Virus record (IMG/VR): IMGVR_UViG_3300044611_002466
Coordinates: 124,001-188,000 of that record
Length of the DNA: 64,000 bases
Source of the DNA: a virus
Reading direction: 5' to 3' (one strand)
In this document: piece by piece, positions 32,987-54,054 of the stretch
Position numbering within the stretch: position 1 is the first letter of the stretch
Layout of the letters: every line of letters starts with the position of its first letter
The notes under the pieces: model-generated
The model's database searches: none
What the model saw: only the letters and a program-made list of their open reading frames with translations
What the model was told of the DNA's origin: nothing
Position numbers and translations under genes: made by a program

Positions 32987-33630
32987 GCGCCGCCGACTTC
33001 CAGGTACTCTCCTTCAAGGACCTCGCCCCCGTTACAAGCGTGGGTTTCTACTCGCAGAAGCCCCTCACTCTCGATGTGCGCGGGACCTCCTTCGTGGGCG
33101 TGGCCGCCGTGAACGTGAACGGGACGCCGGCGGCAGAGTACATCGTGCTCTCCCCCACGCGCATTCTTGTGCAGGTGCCGGAGATTGAGCTGCGCTCCCA
33201 GCTCCGATCTGTGCGGGTCATCCTGGCACGAACCGGCATGGGGGACACAGCGCTCGTCTCCTTCGACGCCATCGTTCCGGGGGCCCGTGCGACGGGCTTC
33301 ACGAAGCTGATGCAGTCGTACCTCCGCGTCCTCTTCACGAACCCGGGAGAGGACCTTGCCTACCCCTGGCTGGGCGGAGGGCTACAGCGGTTGGTGGGGA
33401 GCGCTGCATCCCCGAGCGAGCTCCGCTCCATGACGTCCACCGGAGTGAGCACCGCGGCTCAGCACCTGATCCGCCTTCAGGTCAGGAATCCTGTACTCAC
33501 AGACGCGGAGAAGTTACGGTCTGCCACGCTGCTGCAGGCTGAGCACAACGCCTCGACCGCTTCCGTCAGCGTGCGCGTCGCTCTGACCGCCGTAGACGGC
33601 ACCACCGGCAACCCCCTCGTGAGCGTGTAA
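32983..33630 (+). CDS. gp25-like baseplate wedge protein, 215 aa
   Basis: Residues about 100-215 follow the gp25/W family: TGFTKLMQSYLRVLFTNPGEDLAYPWLGGGLQRLVG, a leader followed by the 'E-x-L-x-x-P-x-x-G' step, then a helix and the closing beta strands (VSVRVALTAV). The amino 95 residues form an extra beta domain (IPT-like). gp25 proteins join wedge parts of contractile-tail baseplates. Start GTG overlaps the previous stop as GTGA. The J-like gene follows at once. Confidence 0.6.
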   Translation: MSAADFQVLSFKDLAPVTSVGFYSQKPLTLDVRGTSFVGVAAVNVNGTPAAEYIVLSPTRILVQVPEIELRSQLRSVRVILARTGMGDTALVSFDAIVPGARATGFTKLMQSYLRVLFTNPGEDLAYPWLGGGLQRLVGSAASPSELRSMTSTGVSTAAQHLIRLQVRNPVLTDAEKLRSATLLQAEHNASTASVSVRVALTAVDGTTGNPLVSV

Positions 33631-36600
33631 TGGCGAACGTCAACTCCCAGGCAGAGGCCATCCGGGACTTCCTCGTAGGACGCCTCGAGGTCTTCGATGC
33701 GAGTCTGGACACCTCCGAGGGCTCGGCGCTCTGGTCGCAAGTGGTCGCCCCCCTGTTCGAGCTCCTGGGCACGGACCCGTTCGACACCGACATCCGCACC
33801 TTCTTGAAGGACCGGGTCACGCAGGCGTTCCCCCTCGTCTCGGCACAGGACGGGGACGCGCTTGTCGACCTGCTCATCACGCCGCTCGAGGTGCTGCTCG
33901 AGCCGCTCAAGCGGGAGATTCAGATCATCCGCAAGGGCCAGTCGGTCCGGTCTTCGGAGCTGCGCCTGGAGGATGCACGCGACTTGGCGGGCAACTTCTT
34001 CGTCGACTGGCGTAGCGGAACGCGAGCCAGCGGGTCCGTGCGCATCTACTACGCGGCGCCGACGCATCTGACCATCCTGCCTACCGCCGAGTTCTCGACC
34101 GCGGGCGGGCTGCTGTTCTACCCCACACGCGCCCTGACGATGCGCCCGGAGTCGATGCTCCTCAACAAGTCGGGGGTGGAGTACTACGCCGACGTTCCGC
34201 TCACCGCGGGAACCCCGGCGCTCTCGCACAACATCGCGAAGGGCGCGATCACCAGCGTCCGGGGGGTGACCGGGTTCACCCGCCTCACCAACCTGCGCGC
34301 CTTCGAGGGAGGTGCGGATCCGGAGACCGCCGCCGAGCTGCTGGCGCGGTCCGAGACCAGCCTGACCGAGCGCACCCTCAACGTGCGTCGAGGCATCGTG
34401 GCCCGTCTCGCGAAGGACTTCGCTTCGATCGTGGATACCGAGGTCGTCGGGTACGGCGACCCGGAGATGTCGCGGGACATCATCACGGGCAGCGGCGAGG
34501 GTTCCGTCGTGGCGAGCGGCGTCTGCTTCATCGTCGGCCAGTTCGTGCTGATGTTCAGCACGTTCGAGAACCGAGGCAGGGAGGGGTCCTCGCAGATCTC
34601 GGAAGGGGACGAGATCGAGCTCAACTTCTGGAGTTTCCTGTACCAGACGGAGCTCGGGAGCGCGAACGAGAAGTTCAGGATCAACAACATCCTTTTCGAC
34701 TCCCGCAACAGCATCTCGGAGCTGCCGTCGGTTCTGCTGTTCCGGATGGACGGGGTGCCTTCAGTGGTGGCCCCCATCGCGGGCACCCTCCCGGGAGTGC
34801 TGCCCGGAGTCTTCGCAGTGGTGCGGTCCACCGGCAAGCTCGAGATCTCCGGCATCCCCGGCGGTATCCTCGACCCGGATACCCTGCGCGGGACCATCGA
34901 GATCAACGACAATGAGGTGCACATCGGAGGTCACTACGACGTGTGGCTTCGCGCTGCGACCGCCACCACCGACACGGCAACGCATGAGGCCGTGCGTTCC
35001 GAGACCGCCATCCTCGAGGGCAATGATCTGGTGTTTTCGGGAGGTAGCACCTCGTATCGACACATCGCGCACAGGCCGTACACCGTCGACAGCACGGCGT
35101 CGTTCCAGCTTGGACAGACCTTGTTCTGCGCGAGCAGCAAGGCGTCTGCGGTGATCGCCGAGGTCAGCCGGGTCGGCTCCGTCAACACGTACTACCTCTG
35201 GGAGATGAACGGGCTGGAGTTCGCCACCGGCGACTCCGTCACGGACGGGACCACCGCAGGGACGCTGCTGAGCGCGTCTTCAGTCCAGTGGGCGGACTAC
35301 GGGGTCAAGCGCGGCATGGTGCTTGCCCTGCCAGGAGGCAACGAGGAGGGCTCCTACCGCATCCTCAAGGTGGACGGGCCCTTCCTCTACTTGGACATCA
35401 ACCTCACGACCACCGGGCGTGGGCAGCTCTTCCGAGTGCTCTCGGAGGTGTCGGTCAACATCTTCGCTCCGAGGACCATCCTCATCCCGTTTGGAGCCGC
35501 CGACGGAGGGGACCTCCGGACTGTCATCGGCTCCAAGACCGCGCGCACCGCCATCAACCTGCAGGATTACGGGGTTCTCATCGGAGACACTCTCGAGATC
35601 CTCACGGGCGATGATGTGGGGTCCTACACCATCTCGGCGTGGGACACGACGTACGGCGGGCAGGGGGCTGTGCTCAGCTCCACCATGACGGCGACGAACT
35701 CATCGGTGCACTACCAGGTGTACCGGATGCAACAGCCGGTACAACGACCGCTGCTGCGGGTAATGCCTGATGGAGTCGTGCTTCTGGATCGGGACGGACA
35801 GGACAGCGGCTACAAGATCCCGAATGCGACCCCCGTAGACGTGCGCCCCGTGCATGCGTTCTCGGGAGCGAAGCCCATCTCCGAGGGCCTCAACGGCTTC
35901 GTGTTGATGGATCCCGGCAGCGGGTGGGCCCCCAGCGCGGACTACACCGTCGACATCGACACGTACGACTGGGCTGGCTGGACGGGCGGGGACTTCGAGT
36001 CGTTCTACGCGGGCGGCAGGTTCCGCCGCGCCGTCACAGACGGGGCGCTCAGCAGCACGGGCGGCTACGTCGCGGTCATCTCCGTACACGGCAGCTCCGG
36101 GCAGATGTACCTGGACTCCAACCTGCCGGAGGCAGCCAAGAACTTCCTCGGCGACATGCGAGAGTGGTTCCTGCGAGTCATCGCCGCCTTCGGTTTCGGC
36201 GGGGACGCAGAGGAGCTGGTGACGGCCCTCAGCCCGCTCAAGTTCGGACCGAACACGGACACCGCCCTCCCCCTCCTCATGCAGTTCGAGATCGTCCTCC
36301 CGTTCGAGATCTTCGACGGGTGCAACAACGTGTACGTCGCCCTCCCGGAGTTCGACTGGGAGAACGAGTTCGCGGTCTCGGACACCTTCGGAGAAGCCCT
36401 CGGACGCCTCAGCGACGGAGCGCTGGTCGGACGCGACCCCGCGTTGCTGCAGGCGTCCCCTGGGGACGTGCTCACGGTGACCAGCGGGCTGAACGCGGGG
36501 GCGTACGTCATCGAGAGCGTGCAGACCTACGCGCTGGTCAACGCGCGAGCGGTGGTCGATGGCGGCGGGGCGATCGATCTCAGCAGCGCCTACAAGGTCG

Positions 36601-39600
36601 GCTTGGTGGTGATCCGGGACGAGTTCCCGGTGCCCGCGTTCCAGGGACTCAACGAGTTCTTCAGCGACGGCGCGACCCCCTGGAGCGTGCCCGCGGTCGC
36701 GGATCTGCCCTTCTCTGTGGCGGACGCAGACGGCAACCCCGTGGACGGGTGGGTCTGGGTGGAGAAGGCCGCCGAGTGGCTCTTCCAGACGCTGAACGCC
36801 CTGGGCTTCGACTTGCCTTCGGGCGTGAGCCTGGATGTCCCGGGGACGCTGAAGGCGCTGTGGCAGATGCTCTTCAGCTCCTACTCCGTGAACCGCCCCA
36901 CGGCGCCCCAGTACCTGCGCATGTACTTCCAGGAGCCCACCAGCTGCACGACGTACGCCCCGCAGGCCTGCGCCAGGTACCAGTGGGCCGCTCCGCTGCC
37001 CGTACCGGCCACGGCGCTCACGGGTGTCGACCTCACGCTCCCGCTTCCCGACCTCGAGGACCTTGTGGTCTCCTTGGAATGCGAGCGACTCACCGGGGCC
37101 GTTCCGCTCACCGGGACCCTCACGGCCGACTTCAACACGGCGGCCACGCTGGAGGAGCTCGCCGGACTCCTCCAGGCACTCCTCGACCCTACCGAGCTGT
37201 ACGTGGTCTTCTCGGGCCCGGCGACGGCGACGGGCGCGCTCTCCGTCACCCAGGCGATCGGCGGGATCGACGAGTACCTGTACCTCTCCGCGATCAGCCT
37301 GACAGCGGGGTTCCGCGTTCTGGGCTTCTACGGACCCACCCCGGCCAAGTTCCCCGAGTTCGACACGACGACTGCGTGTACAACCCCGTACGAGCGGATC
37401 ACTTGCGACGTAGGCACTCTTCTCGCGTTCGACATCGCAGTCGAGACCACCCTCACGCACATCGTGCCCTCCGCCGTGTTCGGCACCGCGTTCCAGATCG
37501 GAGAGACAGTCACGGGCGGGACGTCCTCGGCGACAGGGACGGTCTGGGCCTTCTTCGACGACACGTCGAACGCGAACATCGGGCATCTGTGGGTCGCCGC
37601 GGTCTCCGGTACCTTCGCGGCAGGGGAAGTCGTCACGGGTGCGCTCTCCGGTGCCACATGCACGATCGGTACGGCGACGGCGGATGCCTCCTGGCTCCGC
37701 CAGAACGTACGGGACCAAGTGGACGACGTGACACGCACCTTCGAGGAGTGGGCGGAGCTCTTCACCACGGCGCTCCTGGACGCAGTGCTGGAGAACCTCG
37801 GCGGACCCACCTACCAGGCTGACTTCGACATCGCGCGGTACTCGGCGTCGCTCGCCGTCTCGATGGAGTTCGTGGATCAGTCCGGCACCGGTGCCGGGCC
37901 TGGGCGCTACGAGATCACCATCTACGACGCGACGTACACGCTTGTGGTGCGCTCGATCAGCGTGAGCTCCCCGTCGAACACCTCGTTGACCGACTTCGCG
38001 ATCATCTACATCAACCCCACGCTGCCGGCTCTGAGCACTGGAGGGGTGCTTCTTGGTGTGGACTACAGCCCGGCCACGTACATCCCCACGTTCACGACAA
38101 ACGACGGGACCGTCGAGGTGGTCATCGCCCCGGAGCTCACCTACTGGGAGGCCCTGGAGTTCAAGACAGCCGTGTGCGACCTCATCGACGACGAGGACTT
38201 CGAGGCGGCCGCCCAGGCGCTCAACGCGCGCGCCGACTGGACGAGGGCTGACGACGTCCGCCATCTCTTCTGGTCCTCCACTGGCTCGGCGCTGCGCCTA
38301 CGCGGCATCGTCGGTGGCGAGGCCTCCGAACTCTCCGCGGACGAGTACGCGACGATCCTCGGGTTCCCGGTCTCGGGGGCGCCCCTCGCCATCTCCGCTT
38401 TCGGAACCACGCCGACCTCCTGGGTGGCGCAGGGCAACACGGAGGCAGGCCCGTTGGTGGCGGCCTTCGAGCACCCGACGCCTCCGTCTCTCTTCGTCGG
38501 CACGGCCGGCGCCGTCGAGTTGCTCTTCACGCCCTCGAGCGAGGCCGACGCTTACCAGGTCTTCCCCGCCCAGCCGATCGGGGCTACGGGCACTGCCGCG
38601 ACGGGCCTCCCGCGGGACATCGTGATCGGCACCCCCTACGAAGGGCAGCTGGCGGCGGAGTGCGTGTTCACGGACGACTCGTACTCGTCACTCCTGGAGC
38701 TCGACGTGCGCGAGGAATCGGACCGCCTGCTCGTGCATGAGCAGCGTCGGTTCCTCGAGCACACCGACTACACGGCGCTGGACACGGACATCTCCGGGGA
38801 CCGTGTCGTAGCGGTTGTCACGGCGTTCGGGTCGAACTCGGTGCGCCTGCTGGACCTCGGGGAGAGTAGCGAGTTCACCTTCCTCGCCCCCAACAGCGGC
38901 CTGGAGTTCGACCAAGTGCAGGTGGGGGACGTCCTCTTCATCGAGGAAGGCGACGACGAGGGGGGCTTCACGGTCCTCGAGCGCTCGGCGACAGCCCTCA
39001 CGCTCGACAGGAGCCTCACGTCGAGCACCGAGCGTGTCTACCGCTTCGGCGGGGACGGCGTTCTGGTGGTGGACACGGAAGACGCGCTGTTCTCCTCTGC
39101 CGACGCCCGCTTCACGAGCGACGACATCGGCCGCTACCTGACCATCTGGGCATCGAACCGCGGGGGCACCGACGGGAGCTACCGAATCACGGCTGTGGAC
39201 TCCGGCGGCTCCTCGTGCACTCTCGAGACCGACGTCTTCGCCGAAGAAGAGAGCGGGGTGCACTGGGCGATCGTAAAGGCCCCGGCAGACACGCTCGGGG
39301 CCTCCAAGATCGAGGGACGCACCGCGCTCGTCGGAGTCCGACCCATTCGCGTCTACGCCGGCACGCCCGCCGAGCTCCGCGTTGTGCGCGTGTCGCCCAC
39401 TCTTGTACGCGCGGCGTCTGTGGTCCTCACCTCGCTCACCTCGTCGGGCTCGGTTCCCCGCAGCGGGGTGCGCCAGCCCTACCGATTCACCCGTCCGGGG
39501 GCACAGCACATCTCGTCGACGGCCATGGGCGGTCAGCGAGAGCGGGGGCTCTACTACTTCGACGTCCTCGCCAGTTCCCTGGGCGGGAGCGAGTACTACA

Positions 39601-40283
39601 ACATCCCCGAGCGCACGAAGGTGGAGCCGGTCTTCGGCACGTACGACAGTCACGGCTACAGGATCGACGTGGATGACAACCGCTTCACCTTCTCCACGAA
39701 GGAGGAAGCGGTGCTCGTGATGTCGGCGGTGTTCTTGCCCGCGGGGCTGGATGATGTGCCCGGCAACTTGATCGCGGTCAGCGACCAAAGCGTGCGCTTC
39801 GACTACGAGTACGTGCCGGTCGTCGCGGAGGTGCAGGGCCTGCTGACGTCCGAGGTTGATCGCGTTCTCTGCGCAAACGCGCTCGCACGGCACTTCCTGC
39901 CCGCGTACGTGTCCCTTGACGTCAGCTACACGGGGGGCAACAACGCCACCACCGTGACCGCCGCGCTCCAGGGCGCGATCAACGGGATGAGCGCGATCGA
40001 GGAGCTCGACCTCTCAAAGCTCGAGCGAGTCCTGCACCGGAACGGGGTCAACCAGTACGACCACCCCATCACGCTCACCACCCTCACCCACGACCTGGAT
40101 CGAAGGATCGTGGGTACGCAGGCAGAGGGTGTGATCAACGACAGCAACATCGCGTACAACGGTACCAACCGCACGACGTTCTTCATCGCTGGCGCCGACG
40201 CATCCTCCGGCGAGGAGGCGACCCTCCCCCCTGGCGCGCGGATTCGGTTGACGCGGGGCTCCACGCGCTCCACCTTCAGGTGA
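33630..40283 (+). CDS. Giant baseplate J-like wedge protein, 2217 aa
   Basis: Residues 1-290 follow the baseplate J pattern: disordered helix, then SGTRASGSVRIYYAAPTHLTI, and PETAAELLARSETSLTERTLNVRRGI, DTEVVGYGDPEMSRDI. The last 150 residues also fit the J-family end (VSLDVSYTG, a helix with IEELDLSKLERVLHRNGV). Between are about 1700 residues of beta repeats, several of the form 'G-D-x-L-x-x-x-x-G-x-x-x-G-x-Y-x-I'. Usual J proteins are 350-500 aa, so this one is a four- to fivefold enlargement. It should build the wedge and perhaps its own extended arm. Confidence 0.7.
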   Translation: MANVNSQAEAIRDFLVGRLEVFDASLDTSEGSALWSQVVAPLFELLGTDPFDTDIRTFLKDRVTQAFPLVSAQDGDALVDLLITPLEVLLEPLKREIQIIRKGQSVRSSELRLEDARDLAGNFFVDWRSGTRASGSVRIYYAAPTHLTILPTAEFSTAGGLLFYPTRALTMRPESMLLNKSGVEYYADVPLTAGTPALSHNIAKGAITSVRGVTGFTRLTNLRAFEGGADPETAAELLARSETSLTERTLNVRRGIVARLAKDFASIVDTEVVGYGDPEMSRDIITGSGEGSVVASGVCFIVGQFVLMFSTFENRGREGSSQISEGDEIELNFWSFLYQTELGSANEKFRINNILFDSRNSISELPSVLLFRMDGVPSVVAPIAGTLPGVLPGVFAVVRSTGKLEISGIPGGILDPDTLRGTIEINDNEVHIGGHYDVWLRAATATTDTATHEAVRSETAILEGNDLVFSGGSTSYRHIAHRPYTVDSTASFQLGQTLFCASSKASAVIAEVSRVGSVNTYYLWEMNGLEFATGDSVTDGTTAGTLLSASSVQWADYGVKRGMVLALPGGNEEGSYRILKVDGPFLYLDINLTTTGRGQLFRVLSEVSVNIFAPRTILIPFGAADGGDLRTVIGSKTARTAINLQDYGVLIGDTLEILTGDDVGSYTISAWDTTYGGQGAVLSSTMTATNSSVHYQVYRMQQPVQRPLLRVMPDGVVLLDRDGQDSGYKIPNATPVDVRPVHAFSGAKPISEGLNGFVLMDPGSGWAPSADYTVDIDTYDWAGWTGGDFESFYAGGRFRRAVTDGALSSTGGYVAVISVHGSSGQMYLDSNLPEAAKNFLGDMREWFLRVIAAFGFGGDAEELVTALSPLKFGPNTDTALPLLMQFEIVLPFEIFDGCNNVYVALPEFDWENEFAVSDTFGEALGRLSDGALVGRDPALLQASPGDVLTVTSGLNAGAYVIESVQTYALVNARAVVDGGGAIDLSSAYKVGLVVIRDEFPVPAFQGLNEFFSDGATPWSVPAVADLPFSVADADGNPVDGWVWVEKAAEWLFQTLNALGFDLPSGVSLDVPGTLKALWQMLFSSYSVNRPTAPQYLRMYFQEPTSCTTYAPQACARYQWAAPLPVPATALTGVDLTLPLPDLEDLVVSLECERLTGAVPLTGTLTADFNTAATLEELAGLLQALLDPTELYVVFSGPATATGALSVTQAIGGIDEYLYLSAISLTAGFRVLGFYGPTPAKFPEFDTTTACTTPYERITCDVGTLLAFDIAVETTLTHIVPSAVFGTAFQIGETVTGGTSSATGTVWAFFDDTSNANIGHLWVAAVSGTFAAGEVVTGALSGATCTIGTATADASWLRQNVRDQVDDVTRTFEEWAELFTTALLDAVLENLGGPTYQADFDIARYSASLAVSMEFVDQSGTGAGPGRYEITIYDATYTLVVRSISVSSPSNTSLTDFAIIYINPTLPALSTGGVLLGVDYSPATYIPTFTTNDGTVEVVIAPELTYWEALEFKTAVCDLIDDEDFEAAAQALNARADWTRADDVRHLFWSSTGSALRLRGIVGGEASELSADEYATILGFPVSGAPLAISAFGTTPTSWVAQGNTEAGPLVAAFEHPTPPSLFVGTAGAVELLFTPSSEADAYQVFPAQPIGATGTAATGLPRDIVIGTPYEGQLAAECVFTDDSYSSLLELDVREESDRLLVHEQRRFLEHTDYTALDTDISGDRVVAVVTAFGSNSVRLLDLGESSEFTFLAPNSGLEFDQVQVGDVLFIEEGDDEGGFTVLERSATALTLDRSLTSSTERVYRFGGDGVLVVDTEDALFSSADARFTSDDIGRYLTIWASNRGGTDGSYRITAVDSGGSSCTLETDVFAEEESGVHWAIVKAPADTLGASKIEGRTALVGVRPIRVYAGTPAELRVVRVSPTLVRAASVVLTSLTSSGSVPRSGVRQPYRFTRPGAQHISSTAMGGQRERGLYYFDVLASSLGGSEYYNIPERTKVEPVFGTYDSHGYRIDVDDNRFTFSTKEEAVLVMSAVFLPAGLDDVPGNLIAVSDQSVRFDYEYVPVVAEVQGLLTSEVDRVLCANALARHFLPAYVSLDVSYTGGNNATTVTAALQGAINGMSAIEELDLSKLERVLHRNGVNQYDHPITLTTLTHDLDRRIVGTQAEGVINDSNIAYNGTNRTTFFIAGADASSGEEATLPPGARIRLTRGSTRSTFR

Positions 40284-40518
40284 TGAGTCCATGCACGCGG
40301 CAGTGTCCGACGTAGCACACCCCCTCCCCGTCGAAGACGGCGGAGGGGTCAGAGGGTGTGCGGGGCTCCAGGGCCATGCCGCACTCGTCCCGCGGGCACC
40401 TACGCCGCGTGATCGCCGCGCGGCGGGCGTGGTCCACCCGTTGACGGACTTCGTTGGTAGGAGCGTGGCCCTTCAGAAGGTCGCGCAGCTCGTCTTGCCG
40501 GAGTACCTGTACGTCCAT
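40276..40518 (-). CDS. Antisense small zinc-binding protein, 80 aa
   Basis: A minus-strand gene inside the plus tail operon. It has a basic helical amino part (LRQDELRDLLKGHAPTNEVRQRVDHARRAA) and then C-x4-C ... C-x4-C-x2-H (CPRDECGMA, CYVGHCRVHG), a likely zinc site. GGGGG lies upstream of the ATG at 40518; two ATGs further upstream are alternatives. Its ATG and that of the plus gene at 40517 share a CATG, so the two starts are head to head. The stop overlaps the 2217 aa gene by 8 bases. A plus-strand frame over the same bases has weaker protein character. Confidence 0.5.
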   Translation of the reverse strand: MDVQVLRQDELRDLLKGHAPTNEVRQRVDHARRAAITRRRCPRDECGMALEPRTPSDPSAVFDGEGVCYVGHCRVHGLIT

Positions 40519-42787
40519 GACTACCCCCATCATCTCGAACCGACGACCTGATGAAGGCGACGTCGATGTCTCCATTGATACCCCGTTTCGTTTCGGGGTT
40601 CGAGACCTGGAGACGCGTGCCGACCTGACCACCGTGTACTGCTCGGTCACCTACGCGAGGGCGGTCTACCTTCCTGCGGAGCTCCCAGCCCTTGACGAGG
40701 CGCTACTCGCTGCGGGGGCGTCTCTGTACTTCGGCGTGTTCGACGACGCAGCTGGAGCCGTGAACCCGGGGGATCCCTGCGACCAGTCGATTGAGGAGGT
40801 GGGGTCGGACTCGGTTTACCGCATCGAGAAGTCGAGCGCGGACTTCTCCGCCCAGGAGGGGATGCTCTACATCACCCTGCCCGCCCAGAACCTGCCAGGG
40901 CCGTACACGCTCAAGGTTCACCTGGATCTGGCCGCTGTGACGCCGGCGACAGCCACGTACACCACGCACACCGACTTCGTAGGGGTCGTTGTCGGACTGG
41001 TCTACTGGCCAGAGAACACAGGAATCTTCCTGCTCTTCCGCGATGACGGCACGAAGCGCATCTCGGTTGTGGGACCTGCCACCGATGGCGTGGGCGCGCG
41101 GATCGTGGAGACCGAGGCGGTCTACGACTGGGCAGTGCCAGCCGTCTACTCGATCTACCTGGACCCCACGGTGTTTCGGCGAAGAGCTCTCGTGTGCGCC
41201 ACCGATGCTGACGGGGTGGAGACGGTTCTCGCGGAGATCGACCTTGACGAGCTCAACGAGTTCCTGCCCTCCGTCCGCATGGGCAACCTCTACGCCGAGA
41301 ACTCCCCGGAGGGAGTCACAGCAGTGATGGGACTCGACAGTGTCAACCAGGGGGACTACCTCGACATCTACGGCGCCTCCTTCGCCAACTACGGGAAGGT
41401 CCTCCTCGTCGGCGGGAACCAAACCGCCTCCAGCCTGGTGGAGACGCTGCCCACCGAGTTGATTGAGGTCATCGGGGCGGAAGGGGCGAGCGAATGGGCG
41501 TCGTCCGGGAGCTTCGAGGAAGAGAGCACTGCGACTGCATTGCACATCGCCGCCAGCACCGGGCCCGCGGCGAAGACACGCGAGGAGGTCGACATCACGG
41601 CGACCTCCTGGCTGCTCGTAGGCACCTTCACGGCCCGCAACGCGGTGCACGCCGGTTCGTACAGCACCGGGATGGGCTTCCTCGTGGAGGACGGGACGCG
41701 TCAGGTCAAGCTGACCCTCCTGGACAACTTCACGAGAACCACCGTGGGAATCGAGGACGGCACCCTCGACGAGGACGACTCCTTCACCGGCTACGCTCTC
41801 CCGGTGGACGACGTCGACTGGGGCAAGGACGTCTTCTTCACCCTTCTTGGCTCCCTCACTGGAGGGAGGGACGCGATCCGGCTCTTCATCGGGACGGAGG
41901 ACGTCGTCCCCGCGGCATCGGTGGTGTACCAGGCCACCGACTACGTCGCCACGACCGAGTCGCGGGTCTCGTTCGGGTTCATCGACACCGGCTCCTTCTC
42001 CGGAGACTTCTACCTCGTCGGCCTGTGGATGATCCCGTACGGGTTCTTCTACGAGGGCTCCGAGGCCGCATACCCCGACGCCCAGGGCTGGACGCGGACG
42101 GCGTCTACGGGGTCTCGCACGCTCGGGACGTCCTCGATGGAGGTGGACTGCACCGCCGCGGGAGCCTACGACATCTACTCCGTCGAGGACCTCACCTACG
42201 ACGTGACCTCGGGGGCCTCCGCCTTCATCAAGATCAAGGTGCTCGGGTGGACCGATGCAGTCGGCGCTGCGGACCCGCTGCGCTCGGAGTTCGGACCCGT
42301 CCTGGTGCTCCGCACGGGGGTCACGGGTGCAGGGCTCCGCTTCGTCGTGAACGACGACGGGACGGCCTATGTATTCTTGTCGAATGAGGAGTCGGACTAC
42401 GCCAACGTGCTCGCGCAGAATGCCGCGGGGGTGGCCATCTCCGCCGAGATCGATCTCAGCGTGGAGCATGTCTTCCTGCTCGACGTGAAGCCCCTCCAGT
42501 ACGTCAGGCTCTACATCGACTACGCCACCACCCCCGCGATTGAGGAGGGGTGGCCGGCCTCAACGCTCCTGCGGTCTCTGCCCTCGAACATGCCAGAGGA
42601 CGCCGTCATCGCCTTCGGGTCGCTGGACGAGAGCGCGGGGGTGGCCTGCGAGATCTCCTTCCTGCGCGGCGGCATCGGAAGAGGCTATGACATCAAGGCG
42701 ACCCTCTCCGTGTCCGAGGCGGAGATGCAGGCCTCGGTTTACGGCAGCACCGCGGACGTGTACATCGACGCCCAGGACGAGGACTGA
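40517..42787 (+). CDS. Fibre- or baseplate-arm protein, 756 aa
   Basis: All-beta protein with repeated jelly-roll-like segments (for example RVSFGFIDTGSFSGDFYLVGLW and SAFIKIKVLGWTDAVGAADPLR), typical of concanavalin-like carbohydrate-binding modules in tail fibres. I start at the ATG at 40517; upstream codons in this frame are shadow. Adjacent to the next gene without a gap. Confidence 0.5.
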   Translation: MTTPIISNRRPDEGDVDVSIDTPFRFGVRDLETRADLTTVYCSVTYARAVYLPAELPALDEALLAAGASLYFGVFDDAAGAVNPGDPCDQSIEEVGSDSVYRIEKSSADFSAQEGMLYITLPAQNLPGPYTLKVHLDLAAVTPATATYTTHTDFVGVVVGLVYWPENTGIFLLFRDDGTKRISVVGPATDGVGARIVETEAVYDWAVPAVYSIYLDPTVFRRRALVCATDADGVETVLAEIDLDELNEFLPSVRMGNLYAENSPEGVTAVMGLDSVNQGDYLDIYGASFANYGKVLLVGGNQTASSLVETLPTELIEVIGAEGASEWASSGSFEEESTATALHIAASTGPAAKTREEVDITATSWLLVGTFTARNAVHAGSYSTGMGFLVEDGTRQVKLTLLDNFTRTTVGIEDGTLDEDDSFTGYALPVDDVDWGKDVFFTLLGSLTGGRDAIRLFIGTEDVVPAASVVYQATDYVATTESRVSFGFIDTGSFSGDFYLVGLWMIPYGFFYEGSEAAYPDAQGWTRTASTGSRTLGTSSMEVDCTAAGAYDIYSVEDLTYDVTSGASAFIKIKVLGWTDAVGAADPLRSEFGPVLVLRTGVTGAGLRFVVNDDGTAYVFLSNEESDYANVLAQNAAGVAISAEIDLSVEHVFLLDVKPLQYVRLYIDYATTPAIEEGWPASTLLRSLPSNMPEDAVIAFGSLDESAGVACEISFLRGGIGRGYDIKATLSVSEAEMQASVYGSTADVYIDAQDED

Positions 42788-45700: not shown

Positions 45701-47626
45701 AACCCCGCCACGGGAGTGCAGTTCGCCGTTGACGACGTCGTCTCGGCAATGACGGCATTGTCCCGCGGTATTCAGGTGGTCGACTATCTGACGGACCCGT
45801 TGTGGTGGAAGTCGAGCAACTCGACGGGCGCCGACGAGCTGCGCAAGTTCCACACCTGGCAGGTGCTGATCGACGCCAGCCAAGTCGACTCGCGGGACAT
45901 CCCGCTCATCTCGGACTTCTGCAAGGGAATCCGCCCGATCTACACGATGCCCAAGGTGGTGCTGGCGCTCTACCTCTACGACACGGTGACCTGCGCCGAG
46001 CGCCTGACTTTGTCCGGGGACCTGATCTTCTACGACGACCCGATCCTGAGCCTGGAGTCGACTCACATGGTCGACTCCTACAACGGCAGCAGCTTGGCGC
46101 AGCGCGTCTTCGATCACGGGTCCTTCTCCACGAGGACACTCTTCGAGGGCGTCGACCTGGTAACGGCCGCGGGGACCGGAACTGTGACATCCGAGCGCGG
46201 CGGGTTCATGGGGGTGCTCGACGCCGCCCCCCTGAGCCACGCCCCCGACGAGCCGGTGGCCTTGCTCCTCGGGGTCAACAGCGCGTTCGAGGAGGGCGTT
46301 TACTACCGCGGGACGCCCCTTGTGCGGGCCGGCGACGTCTTGTTCATCCGGGATGGGGTCAACCGAGGCCGCTACCGGGTTGTGGAAGTCGTCAGCGACA
46401 CAGAGCTCTCCATCGAGGAGCTCGAGGACTACCCGCCCACGACGCGGCCCACCGAGGAGATCGAGGCGCGGACCGGCCAAATCTTCCAGATTCAACGGGA
46501 AGACTCTCACATCCTTGTGGCGGACGGCGTTGGCAGCGTCATCAGTCAGGACGGTACCGGCGACGACGCTGTGAGCGTGATCGAGGACATGACGGCCGGT
46601 TTTCGCTGGAACGGCGTGGCTGTGGGAGACCTGCTCATCGCCACCGAGTTTCTCGGCGCCGGCGTACCGGGGGTGTACGAGGTCCTCGAGGTCGGTACAT
46701 GGCTTGACGGAGATCGCGTTGACCTGGACACCCGACTCATCGTCAGGGGAGCTCTTCCGGTAGGGGACACCTTCGCCTACTACGTGATGCGGGACGGCCT
46801 GCGCACCAACCCGTTGATCGAGGTCGACAACCTCGAGCTCAGCATCGGGGTCAGCTCGGTGTCGAGCATGGGCACGGACTTCGTCCTCACGCATCTGCGC
46901 CCAGGGGACCAGATCGAGTTCGTGGACGGAACGTACGCGGGCCAGGCGTTCGACATCATCGAGGCGTCGACGGGCCTGCTCCACCTGCGCAACTTCGTCT
47001 CGGCGGTGAACGAGTCCGGGGTCTCTGCCCGTGTGGTCCGCCCGTCCGTCTTCGAGCGGGAGGACCCTCGTGACGAAGACTGGGAGCTCGAGAAGTTCTG
47101 TCTGGACGACAACGTGTCGATGGTGATCCTCGAGCCCCGCCTTGATGTCGTAGGCCCTCTTGCCGACCTTGAGCTCGTGCTCGACGTGTCGGACCCGCTG
47201 CCCGAGAACTGGATTGCGACGGTGTCGTCAGTCGTGGACCTCGAGACTGCGGGAGTCCAGGCGGGCGACAAGCTCTCCATCGACAACGCCCATGCCAACT
47301 CCGGCGTGTTCGAGGTGACGAACGTCGACGGCACGACTGCCACCATCAGAGGCCTGTGGCGCGAAGCGGAGGGGCCCGTTTCCGGCACCTTCTCGACGCT
47401 CAACCCCGTCTGGGACGTCTCGAACTTCCAGGCTGTGCTCACGACATGGCCCCTGACGACCATCACCGACCTCGGCGACGTCGTCGTCCCTGGTGACGTG
47501 CTCGAGCTGCCTGGGGTGGACGGAACGCCCTTCGTGATCGCCGCCGCCTCGGGCGATACGCTCACCCTCACCCGTGATACGGGAATCACGACCATGTGCG
47601 CAGGGCGCGTCACCCGGAGGACTTGA
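42788..47626 (+). CDS. Giant fibre-like protein with PKD domain and GD-repeat modules, 1612 aa
   Basis: Residues about 20-115 are a PKD/Ig-type domain (VIRLNGRASTSADGAELSYAWAI, GEYTIRLVVS). Residues 120-170 are a helical part. From about 215 to the end come at least eight modules of the form 'A/V-G-D-x-L-x-I-x-x-G-x-x-x-G-x-Y-x-I-x-x-V', for example near nt 43755, 45096, 46330, 46904 and 47263. The same module is in the 2217 aa and 1866 aa proteins. It probably forms a long stiff fibre or arm. Confidence 0.5.
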   Translation: MPPARISALHGFTVEPARAKPVAVISPGASSKVVGAVIRLNGRASTSADGAELSYAWAITATPLGSTVTETSNVDEDGSVVTFVPDITGEYTIRLVVSTPYRSSDPVFATAEATAVLLPLTLRTTPNGKLLFQVVSSFWKMVEHSAVFSTIWSGYMQLTGNELLRAFQVDYGKSIDTIQELFQRRWISYEPALELDSSQCTVVYGRHQGGTRAFTASGVLAGVGVIIDEREVVLLDGIPTAAAIGSELVVYTSGGVPGNCGEYTINRLNSDRSGYIVSASTVFPQPLDDRIAELSSLVTIAGSTTVYDANLAQDFVALGVAAGDVLRLAAGADSGFYTITAVNVGNVRTFTVDRAPTKTSASRSGSIFNAVRISAGKVASAATSTVFLPADEADLTVLDARTLAGAGTLVSAYELVVEPRHILSGMVGEQLYLTTGGAAGRAYTITGINTAENGYRVGSSFGAASYPVDITYSLTSNASIADRVLILEDEAYEIVSASYDSGVDPEDGGRGAAWVVVLAEASAPAGREGMSWRIAATLSTKEHADLEELGLTAGDLLILEAVREDTQFAGEIPCYVFGVAGSKISFDIGKALPALGAYGNLSEQEILDLVNGLRIPRAYRDDSDELQVILAAEEALATVRSAAFSTTYSNIPLTDSTVLAVGPYELTCRVKKLIRNCRIPVDKTLLSAPSLFEYIAESTTGVNTAGEVVLVTEEGTVTTLARAPLELVENRDYTISAEGSTSGTNLATTAGSNILTIPGGDLLDRDLRVGDYVDITSGLDQGRFYVSAVLDAERVRASTQDGAAPATTASALRYTLVRRVQGNFLRFVDGMFTPESPAPDRFWAQLSLFDNNPTIEDNFGALVGVTKEQLDMYGSSQVSYRGAVRALMYAWSSGPTVRNVTIGTHVLMGLPVTEVRGTIINIDVNYDTTRSRGRVLVEDLTVEGQPSGLVRSYFFAASEEAGLPTFQGLATNPATGVQFAVDDVVSAMTALSRGIQVVDYLTDPLWWKSSNSTGADELRKFHTWQVLIDASQVDSRDIPLISDFCKGIRPIYTMPKVVLALYLYDTVTCAERLTLSGDLIFYDDPILSLESTHMVDSYNGSSLAQRVFDHGSFSTRTLFEGVDLVTAAGTGTVTSERGGFMGVLDAAPLSHAPDEPVALLLGVNSAFEEGVYYRGTPLVRAGDVLFIRDGVNRGRYRVVEVVSDTELSIEELEDYPPTTRPTEEIEARTGQIFQIQREDSHILVADGVGSVISQDGTGDDAVSVIEDMTAGFRWNGVAVGDLLIATEFLGAGVPGVYEVLEVGTWLDGDRVDLDTRLIVRGALPVGDTFAYYVMRDGLRTNPLIEVDNLELSIGVSSVSSMGTDFVLTHLRPGDQIEFVDGTYAGQAFDIIEASTGLLHLRNFVSAVNESGVSARVVRPSVFEREDPRDEDWELEKFCLDDNVSMVILEPRLDVVGPLADLELVLDVSDPLPENWIATVSSVVDLETAGVQAGDKLSIDNAHANSGVFEVTNVDGTTATIRGLWREAEGPVSGTFSTLNPVWDVSNFQAVLTTWPLTTITDLGDVVVPGDVLELPGVDGTPFVIAAASGDTLTLTRDTGITTMCAGRVTRRT

Positions 47627-48437: not shown

Positions 48438-48453
48438 CGAGCGAGGGACTGCA

Positions 48454-51400
48454 ATGTCGACGAAGTACATCCGACGGCCGTTCGCCATGGGCAACACCGC
48501 CAACCCGGTGGTGGTGATTCCTGAGCTGCGTGGCTCACTGTTGAAGAACGCGTCCGGGGGGTTTTCGGGGCTGCCGTTACCCAGCGAGCTCGCGATCGAG
48601 ACGGAGGAGCTCACTACCGCCGGCGGCGTGTCCGTCGTGTTCTCCACCGCGACCACCATGACTCAGATCCTCGCGGACATCGCCGGCACCGCCGGCCTGG
48701 TCGGGTTCGTGACGGCTGAAGAGGTCGAGGGCTGTCTTGTCCTGCGGAGCACCGGTTCCGGGGAGGGGGCCTACATCCGCATCATGCCGCCGGTCTCCGG
48801 ATTCGACGACGCGTCGGCCGTCTTTGGGTTCGACGTGTACCCCCACCCGCTCGCGACGGTCAGCGCTGGCGACCTCCTGGATGCTCCCGCCCGTCCCCGC
48901 CAACAGGTCAACCCGGTGGGGACGAAGTTCATCGCGACGGGGGAGGATCGCGTCGGCGCAGCGTACAACCGAGCCCTCCAGATGCTCGCGCTGAACGCCG
49001 ACACGCTCTACACCTGGCTGCAGCGGTCCCTGGCCCGGCCTGTGGGCCTCACGATCAACGCCGCCGACCACGCGGCGTACTTGGTCACGAACATCGACGG
49101 GAGCATCGCTCAGCTCGACCTCTCGAACCTCGCGGCGTTCGACTCCGCGCTGGCAGATGTGCGGCTCTGTGTTGGTGGCTCCATCGGACTGTCGAGAAGC
49201 AGCAGCCTTCGCGAGATCTCGGAGCTGTACGAAGTCACAGACGCCGAGCTGAAGGAGATCCCGGCCCAGGACAGGATCGTCCGCATCGGGGCGGTCACTC
49301 GAGGACAGCGGACGGCCGTGCTGCCCACGTTCGTGGACGAGACCAGCGCGCCGTCGACCCCCGTGCCGGACACCTACCGCACCAGTGTCGATGGCGGGAA
49401 CGCGCTCGGCGTCGACCGAGCGAAGCACGCCGGCGTCGTCATCTCTGAGATCCGCCAGCGCACGACCATAGTCTGCACCGGTGCGACCTTCGTCACGAAC
49501 GGAGTCACCGCCGGAGACGTGGCCACCATCACGGGCGCCGCCGTGAGCAGCCCGTTCAACCACGATGGCACCTACCTCGTGGAGACGGTCGTGTCGGAGG
49601 AAGAGCTCGTGCTCCGACCCGCCGACACGTCGGAGACCTGCCGCGAGCTCAACCCCGCGGCCGGGGCCTTCGGCTCGGTGGTCATCACCTCTGGAGGGGA
49701 GTGGGAGCGGTCCCTCTGGGTCTCGTTCTACCCGCCGATACCGAGAATGCCGGAGGGCGGGTCGTTCGTCCTCGTCGTTCCGGTAGAGACCGCGCTGGGC
49801 GCGCTGGCCCTGGCCGACATCGCCCGGGGCAGCACGCGCACGAACAACAACGTCGCCGGCTGGGCAGTCCTCAACCTGTGGCGCGGGTTGACGCTCTCCG
49901 GGCTCTACCAGGGGATGGCCGGGCAGAACGGCAGCGGCTTCTTCGGATCCATCACGCACCGCCCTCTCCGCCTGGACCGACAGGCCGCGGCGACCACCGC
50001 AGCGGGCACTACCGCGCGCAGCAGCACGGGCACGTCCACCCTGGACCTGCACACGCTCCGCCTGACGGCCGCCGCCACGGACCGCTTCGACACCGCCGAC
50101 GTCGGCCTCACGATCCTCCTCACGACACCGGCGTCGGTCTTCTACGCGGACGAGCCCTGGACGGTCGTCCGCCTGATCGACAACTCCACCGTCGAGCTGG
50201 CCCCGCCCATCTTCAGGGCCGGGTACCAGGAGGCGGACGGCTCCACACTGCCGATCACGTCGTGGAGCCTGGTTGAAGGAGACGCCATCGATCTGCACGG
50301 GGCCATGCACGTCGTGTCCCCCGAGTACTTCGGGGAAGGGGACGACGCCCCGGCGGAGGGCGGCTACGTCTTCTCGCGCGAGCAGCGCGATGAGAGCTCC
50401 ACCGCACCGCCCGTGCCGGGCTTCTTCTCCTTCCTGCACCTCGAGCGCATTCGCCTCACCGCGGACGGCACGAACATCACGGTCACGGCGGCGGGTCCGC
50501 TCTCTGCCGACGACGTGTTGCCGCTCAGCTTCGCGCCGGAGGACACCTCGAACATCTTCGGCGAGTCCTACGAGACCAAGACGGGTGCCTTGCAGTCGTC
50601 TCTGACCTTCGTCCGTCTCCTGAACGGGAAGAACGCAGGGCTGTACCGCGTGAAGGACGTGAAGGACGCGAGTGTCAGCGTCGACGCCATCACGGTCCAG
50701 CGCCTCGATGGGACGCCCGTGGTGTTCACCGCCGAGACCGAGGTCCAGGTCTGCTTCTACAACGCGAAGGTGGGCGCGTCCGTGCCCATTCATGGCGGAC
50801 CAGGCGCGGCCGCGGTCTTCAGCAGCGCGATGAGCCTGTTTGCCGACGCGAAGGAGCCAGACCACGCTGCCGACTACGGCCTCCGCCTGGGCTGGCGTGG
50901 CGTGGGTGGTGGGATCGTCGCCTACGTCAATGACCCCGAGTTCAAGGCGTACGACAACGGGGACGCGGGGGACGGACCCCTCATCACAGCCGTCCTCCAC
51001 GCGCCTGCGGACGGCATCGACATCAAGACGACGGGGGCTGACTCGGGGGCGACAGCACGTCGCGCGTCGTTCGGATTCCGTGTCCGGGCCCATACCAACC
51101 GCCACAACTACGCACTCTCGAACCCGGGGGCGGCGGGGCCCCTCTTCCACTCGCAGGCGTCGTTCGGTGGGTACGTCGGGCAGACCGGCAGCGACCCCGC
51201 CCTCGTCCTCGTGAAGCAGGACAGGGACGAGGCCGGGGACGAGAGCACGCAGTACTCCAAGCTCACCCCGAGCGCCGCACTCCTTGTCGGCCGTGCGGGG
51301 CCCTCGAGCGCAGACGACCTCTCCGGCCCCTCTGGACGCGGTTCCGCGCTCGAGGCCGCCGGCTCCATCTACGCCTACCGACACACCTTCACGGCGGGGA

Positions 51401-54054
51401 GCAACCCCGCCTGGAGCGAGGGAGGCATCTACTCCGAGGACGTCCTGGGGGCTGGCCGCTGGCTCTACCCGACCGTCGGCGTCTACGACTTCGGGGCGTC
51501 TCCGTACGCCGGGACGGGGTCCTTCTCCGGCTGGGAGGCCCCCACCCAGCTCGGCAACGCCGGGCAGGTGTACCCACCGGGAGTCGCGGACGCGGCGGTG
51601 AGCGCGGAGCTGCTCGCCCCTGACTACGCCATCTTCAACTACGCGCACTCCGGCATCGTGCACATCGCGGACGTGAGCGCGATGGTCCCCCCGATCGCCG
51701 CGCCCTTCAACCGCTTCGTGGGCTGCCGTTTCAAGATCGACGACGCTGCGGCAGATCTCGACCAGGTCGAGTTCGCCATCGTGGGCTCGGTGGTGTCTGC
51801 AGAGAACCGCCTCTACCTCGCGCTGCACAGTGAGACAGAGACCATCGACGTGGACGCGGGCCAGGACCGCGAGTTCAAGATCCTGGGGCAGCGCTGGCAC
51901 GAAGCGCACCTCAACGTGGGCGAGTACCTCTTCTTCGGTACCAGCCTCGGACGGGGCTCGCTGGAAGACGTCCCGCTGGTCGGACTGCTCGCGGACGAGA
52001 TCAACAGCGCGGTGTCGCGCGGACCGCTCGCCACGCCCTCCTACCCGGAGCTGCAGACGGTCGAGGCACTCTCCCCCTACTCGTGGACTGGTCACGATGG
52101 TGTTCGTATCGGACTTGCCTCTGGGCTGTCGGATATGCCGAATGTCGACGTCACCTCGACAGCGTACGCCAGCGCGATCACATGGCCAGAGGGCGCCCAC
52201 ACCTTCGTACACCATGGGTGGGCCGAGGACTCCTTCGAGCCCCGCGGAGCGTTCCCCAACTTCGCGTCAGTTGCGGTGGATCAGGCGCTCGATGCGGGAG
52301 ATCCGACGCTCGACAGCACGTACAAAGGCTCACTGCTCGTCAACGACGTAGCGATCTCGTTTCCTGGCTCGGGCACGGCAGGCCAGTTGACTTGGTCTGA
52401 GAGGTGGGGCGGATGCCTCCACCTGAACCGAAGCTCTGCCGGGCCCGCTATGCAGATGCGCGTCTGGCGGCCCGGACACTCGGTTGTATTTCAGAGCCAC
52501 CTGTCACTGCGCGTAACGCTCCTCGTACGGGTACACGACTCGAAGTCATTGACCATCGCGCTGCGGAAGGCGAACGGCGACGCCGTTGCAACCGGGGATG
52601 CGGCGGTTCTGGCCAGTACCACGCCCCAGGAGGTCGTTGTTGATCTGAGCGTTCTCGACGAGGCCGTCCTTCACGAAGGCGCCGTAGGCTCCGTCGCCGC
52701 GGACCGCAGCGCGGAGATGCTCTTCCCCACGCTCGACATCCGCGTGGAGAACACCGGTGGCGACGTCTACCTTCTCGAGTTCAGGGTGGAGCAGCTGACG
52801 CGGCCCATCCTGCAGGATGGGCCGCTCCTGGTGGCGGGCCCGATCCTCGCGCACGCCTTTCGCCACACCGAGGCTGTCAAGGGGTACGACACGCGCGGTC
52901 CCCTGGACGCGGACATGCTCACGGGCAGTGGGTACGGCCTTGCGACCGCATCGCTCGACCCGATCCTCTCTTCGGATCCGGACTCTGTGTGGGATCGCAT
53001 CGGCGAACAGGAGGTAGACGGGACTCCGGGACGCATTCGCGCGAACCTCAGCGGTGGCGGTGATCTCTGGCACCAGATGGTAGCTCCCAGAGAGCTCTTC
53101 TTCTCCAGGGGACCCGCCTCCGCCACCATCACGTTGGTGAACGGCGCGTACGACCCCCTCTTCTTCATCTACAAGACATGCGACACGACGGGGGTGGACT
53201 CGGACATCCATAGCGAGAACTTCCAACTGCCTGGTAGGACCGGATTCTCGATACCGTTCGACCCGCCGCACGGGGCGCTGCTCACATCCCTCGCGCTCAG
53301 TATGAGCTTTCGACCGAACTACTACACCGGCGATGACGAGCTGCACTGGGGCATCTTCCGCGCGTTGAATGCGACGGGACTCATCACCCTGGGCAGCAGC
53401 GCCACCGTCAAGGAGGTCCTGGACAAGGCGACAAACGATACGGCCGCGGGGGTCTATGTGGACCTTTGGAGACACAACGCACTGGATACTGGAATCGTGG
53501 AGCCGCAGAATGCCGAGTTTAGCGAGGCACTGCCGCTCTTCGGGTATCCCGAACGGCTTGCACGTCTCCCCATCGATCTGTCCGGCGTAGCGCCTCCGAC
53601 GTGGCGTGCAAATCAAGTAGATCCCACGAAGGTCCCTGTACTCACCGGACGCGGAGCCGAGGTGTTTGCCGGACAGGAGCACTTCGTCCGGAGGAGCTGG
53701 GACCTACTTCAGGCGGTCGACGCCGCGCACCATCAGGCGCTACGAGTCGATCGCAGGCAATACACGTACTTCATCACGATCTCGTTCTGGGGCGGCCCTC
53801 GCGGTACGGGTACGCTCGACGGCAGCACCGTCTACGAGTACTCCAGGATCCCTGTAGGGGTGATGGCGGAGCACAATGACGGCATCACGCTGGGCGGCAC
53901 TCTGGGCGACCCCACTGTGCGCGTTGCGGCAGGCTACCCCGGCGAGTACGGCGGTCCGAACAACGCGGACAACATGAACTTCCCGCCCCAGGCGAAGTTC
54001 CGCGGTGCCCGACTTGGGTGGATCACGGACCGCGCAGGGAACGGGGGCTGGTAG
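48454..54054 (+). CDS. Giant tail fibre-like protein, 1866 aa
   Basis: Long all-beta protein with many Gly, Thr, Ser and Asp. One GD module lies near nt 49514 (GDVATITGAAVSSPFN, then DGTYLVETVVS), then further beta segments. Third codon positions become more mixed in the last third (about 52300-53900), suggesting an exchanged distal receptor-binding end. No enzymatic motif seen. It is the last gene of the tail operon and ends just before a minus-strand terminator. No downstream chaperone is apparent. Confidence 0.55.
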   Translation: MSTKYIRRPFAMGNTANPVVVIPELRGSLLKNASGGFSGLPLPSELAIETEELTTAGGVSVVFSTATTMTQILADIAGTAGLVGFVTAEEVEGCLVLRSTGSGEGAYIRIMPPVSGFDDASAVFGFDVYPHPLATVSAGDLLDAPARPRQQVNPVGTKFIATGEDRVGAAYNRALQMLALNADTLYTWLQRSLARPVGLTINAADHAAYLVTNIDGSIAQLDLSNLAAFDSALADVRLCVGGSIGLSRSSSLREISELYEVTDAELKEIPAQDRIVRIGAVTRGQRTAVLPTFVDETSAPSTPVPDTYRTSVDGGNALGVDRAKHAGVVISEIRQRTTIVCTGATFVTNGVTAGDVATITGAAVSSPFNHDGTYLVETVVSEEELVLRPADTSETCRELNPAAGAFGSVVITSGGEWERSLWVSFYPPIPRMPEGGSFVLVVPVETALGALALADIARGSTRTNNNVAGWAVLNLWRGLTLSGLYQGMAGQNGSGFFGSITHRPLRLDRQAAATTAAGTTARSSTGTSTLDLHTLRLTAAATDRFDTADVGLTILLTTPASVFYADEPWTVVRLIDNSTVELAPPIFRAGYQEADGSTLPITSWSLVEGDAIDLHGAMHVVSPEYFGEGDDAPAEGGYVFSREQRDESSTAPPVPGFFSFLHLERIRLTADGTNITVTAAGPLSADDVLPLSFAPEDTSNIFGESYETKTGALQSSLTFVRLLNGKNAGLYRVKDVKDASVSVDAITVQRLDGTPVVFTAETEVQVCFYNAKVGASVPIHGGPGAAAVFSSAMSLFADAKEPDHAADYGLRLGWRGVGGGIVAYVNDPEFKAYDNGDAGDGPLITAVLHAPADGIDIKTTGADSGATARRASFGFRVRAHTNRHNYALSNPGAAGPLFHSQASFGGYVGQTGSDPALVLVKQDRDEAGDESTQYSKLTPSAALLVGRAGPSSADDLSGPSGRGSALEAAGSIYAYRHTFTAGSNPAWSEGGIYSEDVLGAGRWLYPTVGVYDFGASPYAGTGSFSGWEAPTQLGNAGQVYPPGVADAAVSAELLAPDYAIFNYAHSGIVHIADVSAMVPPIAAPFNRFVGCRFKIDDAAADLDQVEFAIVGSVVSAENRLYLALHSETETIDVDAGQDREFKILGQRWHEAHLNVGEYLFFGTSLGRGSLEDVPLVGLLADEINSAVSRGPLATPSYPELQTVEALSPYSWTGHDGVRIGLASGLSDMPNVDVTSTAYASAITWPEGAHTFVHHGWAEDSFEPRGAFPNFASVAVDQALDAGDPTLDSTYKGSLLVNDVAISFPGSGTAGQLTWSERWGGCLHLNRSSAGPAMQMRVWRPGHSVVFQSHLSLRVTLLVRVHDSKSLTIALRKANGDAVATGDAAVLASTTPQEVVVDLSVLDEAVLHEGAVGSVAADRSAEMLFPTLDIRVENTGGDVYLLEFRVEQLTRPILQDGPLLVAGPILAHAFRHTEAVKGYDTRGPLDADMLTGSGYGLATASLDPILSSDPDSVWDRIGEQEVDGTPGRIRANLSGGGDLWHQMVAPRELFFSRGPASATITLVNGAYDPLFFIYKTCDTTGVDSDIHSENFQLPGRTGFSIPFDPPHGALLTSLALSMSFRPNYYTGDDELHWGIFRALNATGLITLGSSATVKEVLDKATNDTAAGVYVDLWRHNALDTGIVEPQNAEFSEALPLFGYPERLARLPIDLSGVAPPTWRANQVDPTKVPVLTGRGAEVFAGQEHFVRRSWDLLQAVDAAHHQALRVDRRQYTYFITISFWGGPRGTGTLDGSTVYEYSRIPVGVMAEHNDGITLGGTLGDPTVRVAAGYPGEYGGPNNADNMNFPPQAKFRGARLGWITDRAGNGGW

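What the first reader, a model, noticed from the sequence alone, without database searches (positions are those of the whole stretch)
33630..54054. A shared GD-repeat module in three giant tail proteins
A pattern G-D-x-L-x-I-x-x-G-x-x-x-G-x-Y-x-I-x-x-V, often followed by a hydrophobic strand, occurs at least five times in the 2217 aa protein, eight or more in the 1612 aa protein and once in the 1866 aa protein. It is likely a beta-hairpin module reused to lengthen fibres and baseplate arms, and I do not know a name for it.
Basis: seen in the sequence. Interest (0 to 1): 0.6.

Follow-up and report, generated by a model that had tools for sequence, protein, structure and literature searches.

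The report
Repeated beta module in phage tails
Three giant tail proteins of an uncultivated 188-kb phage are partly built from copies of one unnamed ~65-residue beta-strand domain; related phages carry between zero and eight copies in the same baseplate protein, some also carry it in the tail sheath, and it resembles the root of known side fibres, so it looks like a common building block of phage tails.

Summary
A profile from the P0001 copies finds the P0002 copies and vice versa, well above shuffled proteins. I count 5 copies in the 2217-aa protein, 8 (plus 1-2 degenerate) in the 1612-aa protein and 1-2 weak ones in the 1866-aa protein. The unit is a ~65-residue five-strand domain, not a lone hairpin.

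The 2217-aa protein is a Baseplate_J/gp6-like wedge. Across 79 related viral loci the profile converges on 254 copies in 106 proteins, with no false hits on reversed sequence. Wedges carry 0-8 copies; count follows wedge length and the wedge tree. The domain also sits in tail sheaths, including cultured Salmonella phage Arash, and in proteins of phages phiM9 and S-TIM5.

Pfam and NCBIfam have no model for it. Profile-profile comparison links it to the N-terminal domain of F-pyocin-type side fibres, which has solved structures (PDB 25ve, 25vj).

Most likely it is an ancient structural spacer and docking domain of tail proteins. Copies are old (paralogues 25% identical, orthologues 62%). AlphaFold models are low-confidence, so the exact fold stays open.

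The parts
33630..40283 (+). 2217-aa baseplate wedge (Baseplate_J / T4 gp6-like) with five modules
   Evidence: Pfam PF04865 E 4.2e-5, 23.4 bits over cut-off 21.1; phrog_6 baseplate wedge E 1.1e-12
35250..35441 (+). module A1 (residues 541-604, GM instead of GD)
   Evidence: 42.6 bits with iterated profile; left-out score 7.6 bits
35532..35726 (+). module A2 (residues 635-699)
   Evidence: 50.8 bits; left-out score 28.8 bits
36405..36572 (+). module A3 (residues 926-981)
   Evidence: 25.6 bits; left-out 17.1 bits
38865..39047 (+). module A4 (residues 1746-1806)
   Evidence: 43.5 bits; left-out 25.8 bits
39075..39278 (+). module A5 (residues 1816-1883)
   Evidence: 44.2 bits; left-out 7.1 bits
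42788..47626 (+). 1612-aa protein: N-terminal PKD-like region, conserved core about residues 825-1111, eight modules of which five are at the C-terminus
   Evidence: PKD weak, PKD_4 over cut-off in the L018 homologue; core shared with L018/L019
43694..43891 (+). module B1 (residues 303-368)
   Evidence: 40.7 bits; left-out 29.1 bits
44003..44212 (+). module B2 (residues 406-475)
   Evidence: 20.1 bits
45041..45241 (+). module B3 (residues 752-818)
   Evidence: 33.7 bits; left-out 17.6 bits
46310..46456 (+). module B4 (residues 1175-1223)
   Evidence: 27.6 bits; left-out 18.0 bits; also matched weakly by phrog_1980 tail fibre, E 0.03
46562..46792 (+). module B5 (residues 1259-1335)
   Evidence: 28.4 bits; not found when left out
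46847..47041 (+). module B6 (residues 1354-1418)
   Evidence: 29.0 bits; left-out 3.2 bits
47213..47389 (+). module B7 (residues 1476-1534)
   Evidence: 28.3 bits; left-out 12.7 bits; whole P0002 matches phrog_1236 here
47432..47608 (+). module B8 (residues 1549-1607)
   Evidence: 15.5 bits; left-out 7.0 bits
43493..43666 (+). degenerate module-like stretch (residues 236-293)
   Evidence: 5.2 bits only
48454..54054 (+). 1866-aa protein, function not assigned
   Evidence: no Pfam or convincing PHROG match; orthologues in L010 and L011
49459..49665 (+). module C1 (residues 336-404)
   Evidence: 26.1 bits with iterated profile; 6.5 bits, whole protein E 3.4e-4, with a profile built without it
50605..50754 (+). 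weak module C2 (residues 718-767)
   Evidence: 13.5 bits, 7.0 bits

Best explanation
The GD repeat is a real, old, ~65-residue all-beta domain of virion tail proteins (consensus about TVTTFSDATTDFTALGVQVGDVLTILSGPNAGSYTITAVVSGTTLTLDRALPATTESGLSYRVVR). It is inserted into or added to conserved cores: the Baseplate_J/gp6-like wedge, the large protein encoded after it, and in relatives the tail sheath and other virion proteins. It most likely works as a rigid spacer and docking domain: each copy folds on its own, extends the wedge or neighbouring protein outward, and offers beta-edge and loop surfaces for contact with adjacent subunits. It is probably homologous to the N-terminal domain of F-pyocin-type side fibres. 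Shown: the shared domain, its fixed positions, its spread over tail genes, and copy number tracking wedge size and ancestry. Inferred: fold details, the spacer/docking function, and homology with the side-fibre domain (profile evidence, no structure superposition).
For: Cross-protein and leave-one-out profile tests. Iteration over the wedge loci: 254 copies, 106 proteins, 54 loci, none below 1e-3 on reversed ORFs; all 110 hit ORFs lie on the wedge's strand. Wedge length against copies rho 0.79, n=75: 50 wedges under 900 aa have 0-1 copies, 15 of 900-1800 aa average 4, 10 over 1800 aa have 5. On the wedge-core tree the four count classes need 5 changes against 35 in shuffles. L018/L019 keep the core of the 1612-aa protein but L018 lacks its five C-terminal modules. 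Orthologous copies 62% identical, paralogues 25%. Sheath-like protein of G014 E about 1e-21 and Arash gp236, a sheath by phrog_279, E 7.8e-8. Foldseek against viral models: best hit a Baseplate J-like protein, E 5.6e-9; two cultured-phage hits, S-TIM5 and phiM9 proteins, recur in the sequence profile search. Side-fibre domain: hhalign 88.6%, E 2.6e-6, shuffled columns at most 2.6%; three modules match phrog_1980 tail fibre (best 7.6e-5), whose N-terminus the side fibre also matches at 3.9e-22. No hit in 96 bacterial genomes.
Against: AlphaFold models are poor (mean pLDDT 57 and 58, pTM 0.39 and 0.33) and no PDB structure matches below E 0.001. The small alignment A3 did not match the side-fibre profile (1.3%); only the wider A7 did. 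Inside the long-wedge clade length varies without change in copy number. No data show that the copies touch other subunits. The length correlation is inflated by shared ancestry.
Confidence: 0.66

Rival explanations
1. The copies are host-surface binding (for example glycan-binding) decoration domains, multiplied to raise avidity rather than to build the baseplate.
For: They sit in tail proteins, their number varies between phages, sheath insertions may face outward; side-fibre relatives belong to host-binding proteins.
Against: Positions are fixed and old, whereas receptor-binding parts usually turn over fast (general knowledge). In side fibres the related domain is the N-terminal one, which by general knowledge attaches the fibre to the tail rather than to the host. 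No carbohydrate-binding family matches.
Confidence: 0.15
2. It is a viral form of the ubiquitin-E1 FCCH-type barrel (PF16190), as some uncultured phage proteins are annotated.
For: Foldseek lists ubiquitin E1 9b5c with probability 1.00 over 87 columns at 3.8 A and an FCCH-annotated Caudovirales model (E 4.8e-4).
Against: PF16190 finds nothing at E 0.1 or better in 16 phage records including this one, and no module matches it in Pfam scans; the E1 hit has E 0.18.
Confidence: 0.1
3. The similarity is convergence on the common GD beta-turn seen in cradle-loop barrels (double-psi, RIFT) and KOW domains, not one family.
For: Weak hits to double-psi barrels, riboflavin synthase, EF-Tu, Spt5 and one KOW match at E 0.015.
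Against: The similarity spans all predicted strands with consistent spacing; profiles cross-detect copies over most of the ~60 positions; hits below 1e-3 on reversed sequence are zero.
Confidence: 0.07

Closest known systems
N-terminal domain of F-pyocin-type side fibres (PDB 25ve, 25vj; phrog_1980, phrog_2712)
   Same: Near full-length profile match in register, same kind of virion protein
   Different: Single copy at the protein start, shorter turn after the GD strand, only marginal direct HMM scores; no structural superposition done
Baseplate_J / T4 gp6-like wedge (PF04865, phrog_6)
   Same: The protein that holds five copies belongs here
   Different: T4 and Mu carry no copy at E 0.05; wedges of about 500-620 aa such as those of Arash and phage G have none
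Ig-like, PKD and other accessory beta domains of phage virions
   Same: Works like them: small beta domain inserted singly or in series in tail proteins (comparison from general knowledge)
   Different: No sequence match of the module to these families
Ubiquitin E1 FCCH domain (PF16190)
   Same: Weak structural resemblance in Foldseek
   Different: No profile match
Lambda tip attachment protein J, residues about 476-520
   Same: PGDVIEI...GRVLAV...LTLDR pattern, marginal HMM score
   Different: Domain E-values 0.02-0.1 only; not claimed as homologous

Membership tests
Baseplate_J / gp6-like wedge (for the 2217-aa protein) | Match to the family profile over its curated cut-off | tested here: met
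   PF04865 23.4 bits, cut-off 21.1; phrog_6 1.1e-12
Baseplate_J / gp6-like wedge (for the 2217-aa protein) | Place in a tail gene cluster comparable to that of a cultured phage with a homologous wedge | tested here: met
   Sigma-70-type gene at 28493-29368 upstream; a sigma factor also precedes the wedge in Arash, gp10 to gp13
F-pyocin-type side-fibre N-terminal domain | Profile-profile similarity over the whole domain | tested here: met
   88.6% probability, 61 columns; shuffled controls up to 2.6%; but the small alignment A3 alone gives 1.3%
F-pyocin-type side-fibre N-terminal domain | Same three-dimensional fold as 25ve residues 1-81 | tested here: inconclusive
   Models too poor; 25ve not among the listed Foldseek hits
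Ubiquitin E1 FCCH (PF16190) | Match to the Pfam profile | tested here: not met
   0 of 16 phage records
KOW motif (PF00467) | Match to the Pfam profile | tested here: not met
   only 1 of 41 modules, at E 0.015
Double-psi / RIFT cradle-loop barrels with GD box | Barrel topology with the GD turn | tested here: inconclusive
   Only weak sequence and Foldseek hits
PKD / Ig-like domains | Match of the modules to these Pfam families | tested here: not met
   PKD matches only the separate N-terminal region of the 1612-aa protein

The most novel reading that the evidence does not exclude
The module is a general, so far unnamed docking unit of tailed-phage virions, shared by wedge, sheath, neighbouring structural and side-fibre proteins, and copies in different proteins bind each other edge to edge, so that fibres, sheath and wedge are joined by one family of self-matching domains whose number sets baseplate size.
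Probability: 0.15. Interest if true: 0.7.

Novelty: new variant of a known kind. Interest (0 to 1): 0.45.

Why it matters
Giant tail proteins of large uncultivated phages are mostly unannotated. One profile recognises parts of wedge, sheath and neighbouring proteins that Pfam and NCBIfam leave blank, and gives a countable character for how baseplates grew: 0-1 copies in wedges under 900 aa, 2-4 at about 1330 aa, 5-8 at about 1570 aa and more. The link to a solved side-fibre domain makes the fold and the docking idea directly testable.

Tried and rejected
A literal search for the stated pattern finds nothing. tblastn of the module consensus and of single modules against 50,697 phage records finds nothing at E 0.1, so plain BLAST is too weak here and profiles are needed. 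PDB searches with P0001, P0002 and the first module profile gave only chance-level hits. FCCH membership rejected by profile (attempts to fetch FCCH sequences for a profile-profile test failed). Recent tandem duplication rejected: paralogues average 25% identity. Distal tail protein gp20 (PDB 23gd) matches the side-fibre profile (E 3e-10), but the mycobacteriophage paper PMC13252515, where I looked for it, does not describe it. Literature searches found no description of this repeat; that library holds only open-licence papers.

Full report
Context. The window is bases 124001-188000 of a 188,230-base virus record. The 2217-aa protein P0001 (33630-40283) is a baseplate wedge: Pfam Baseplate_J E 4.2e-5, phrog_6 baseplate wedge E 1.1e-12. 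The 1612-aa P0002 (42788-47626) has only a weak PKD-like N-terminal match, the 1866-aa P0003 (48454-54054) no Pfam match. A sigma-70-type gene lies upstream at 28493-29368; in Salmonella phage Arash, too, a sigma factor (gp10) precedes the wedge (gp13).

Observation. No copy fits the written pattern at every position, but a residue-class version occurs 4 and 5 times in P0001 and P0002 against 0.03 and 0.012 in shuffles. A profile from P0001 copies alone finds P0002 copies at up to 16.4 bits, and the reverse at up to 20.1 bits; the best of 600 shuffled proteins reaches 6.3 and 6.9. With three-phage profiles and each copy left out, 7 of 13 exceed the best shuffle. Counts are 5, 8 (plus degenerate ones) and 1-2.

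Conservation. Three relatives give full-length orthologues of P0001 and P0002: L008/L010 (75-76% identical), L009/L011 (63-66%) and L017 (47-51%); the modules are kept in place. Same-position copies average 62% identity between window and L009, different copies within the window 25%. The repeats are therefore old and fixed, not a recent tandem expansion.

Gain of modules. L018 and L019 (195-kb phages) have a wedge of about 1343 aa instead of 2217, and a P0002 homologue of about 1150 aa that shares residues about 59-331 and 825-1111; in L018 the region of the five C-terminal modules is missing. A scan with the wedge N-terminus gave 79 loci. The module profile, iterated on the ORFs of all loci held, converged at 254 copies in 106 proteins of 54 loci; reversed ORFs gave none below 1e-3 in any round. 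All 110 ORFs with hits run in the wedge's direction. Among 75 complete wedges, length and copies correlate (rho 0.79): 50 wedges under 900 aa carry 0-1 copies, 15 of 900-1800 aa average 4, 10 of more than 1800 aa all carry 5. On a tree of the wedge core, four classes of copy number need 5 changes against 35 for shuffled labels. Shared ancestry explains part of the correlation, and within the long-wedge clade length varies with constant copy number.

Wider spread. In G014 a 923-aa protein carries three copies (E about 1e-21). I call it sheath-like because of its N-terminal sequence and because two copies lie at places similar to those in Arash gp236; it has no Pfam or PHROG match itself, so this is inference. 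Arash gp236 is a sheath by phrog_279 (E 6.8e-10) and carries one to two copies (E 7.8e-8). Cultured phages phiM9 (VrlC-like protein next to gp8) and S-TIM5 (gp116) have matches (E 2.2e-5 and 5.5e-6 in a search of four proteins, 6.6e-4 and 9.7e-4 for the whole genomes), and proteins of both phages also appear in the independent Foldseek list. T4, Mu, phage G and Vibrio phage D181 have none at E 0.05. None of 96 bacterial genomes of one phylum had a match at 1e-4.

Structure. Models of P0002 1112-1612 and P0001 480-760 have mean pLDDT 58 and 57 and pTM 0.33 and 0.39; module cores reach 70-88. In most copies the predicted order is strand, short helix or turn, strand (GDxLxI), strand (GxYxIxxV), strand, strand. 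This supports a common domain but does not settle the fold. PDB fold searches gave nothing below E 0.001. The viral library gave Baseplate J-like proteins of uncultured Caudovirales first (E 5.6e-9).

Relation to known families. No Pfam or NCBIfam model covers the module. Three of 41 copies match phrog_1980 tail fibre (best 7.6e-5). The PDB profile search listed the F2-pyocin side fibre 25ve over nearly the whole module (E 0.045). Seven side-fibre N-termini of cultured phages, aligned as A8, match the 41-module alignment A7 at 88.6% probability, E 2.6e-6, in register. With the larger iterated alignment the match is 71.5%, while 60 column shuffles and a reversal reach at most 2.6%. The first, smaller alignment A3 did not match. 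The side fibre itself matches phrog_1980 at 3.9e-22, so both groups meet in one family. I regard homology as likely but not proven. PF16190 (FCCH) was tested and not met.

Mechanism. Most likely the module is an independently folding spacer and docking domain added to conserved tail cores. Spread over wedge, sheath and fibre roots, fixed positions and absence from the rest of the genome fit that; a host-binding role is the main rival. Neither contact between modules nor binding has been tested.

Noticed in passing
about 35080-35265 and 37480-37665 (P0001 residues 485-545 and 1284-1345): A second repeat type, F-x-x-G-E-x-V-T-G-x-x-S-G-A-like, occurs in pairs in the wedge and is seen in L017 and L009 too; it is distinct from the GD module.
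   Followed up: no
28493-29368: A sigma-70-type factor gene sits inside the tail/baseplate gene cluster; Salmonella phage Arash has a sigma factor (gp10, L012 11892-12596) shortly upstream of its wedge gene.
   Followed up: partly
40454-42787: The ORF listed from a TTG is probably shorter: similarity to L017 and L011 starts near MTTPIISNRRPDEGDVDVS; the product has no Pfam or PHROG match.
   Followed up: no
L018:2685-4190: A SNF2-like helicase ORF (by eye from its sequence) lies between virion-type genes upstream of the wedge in this relative; it was not looked for in the window.
   Followed up: no
L018:8986-13017 (residues about 925-1090): One module of the shorter wedge seems to be split by an inserted stretch between its GD strand and its GxYxI strand.
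   Followed up: partly
30316-31242 and 32983-33630: Upstream proteins have carboxypeptidase-regulatory-like (E 2.3e-6, under cut-off) and IPT/TIG-like (E 0.009) beta domains, so several unrelated beta modules seem to be used in this tail cluster.
   Followed up: no
L112:688-3456: A sheath-like 923-aa protein without Pfam or PHROG match carries three GD modules.
   Followed up: yes
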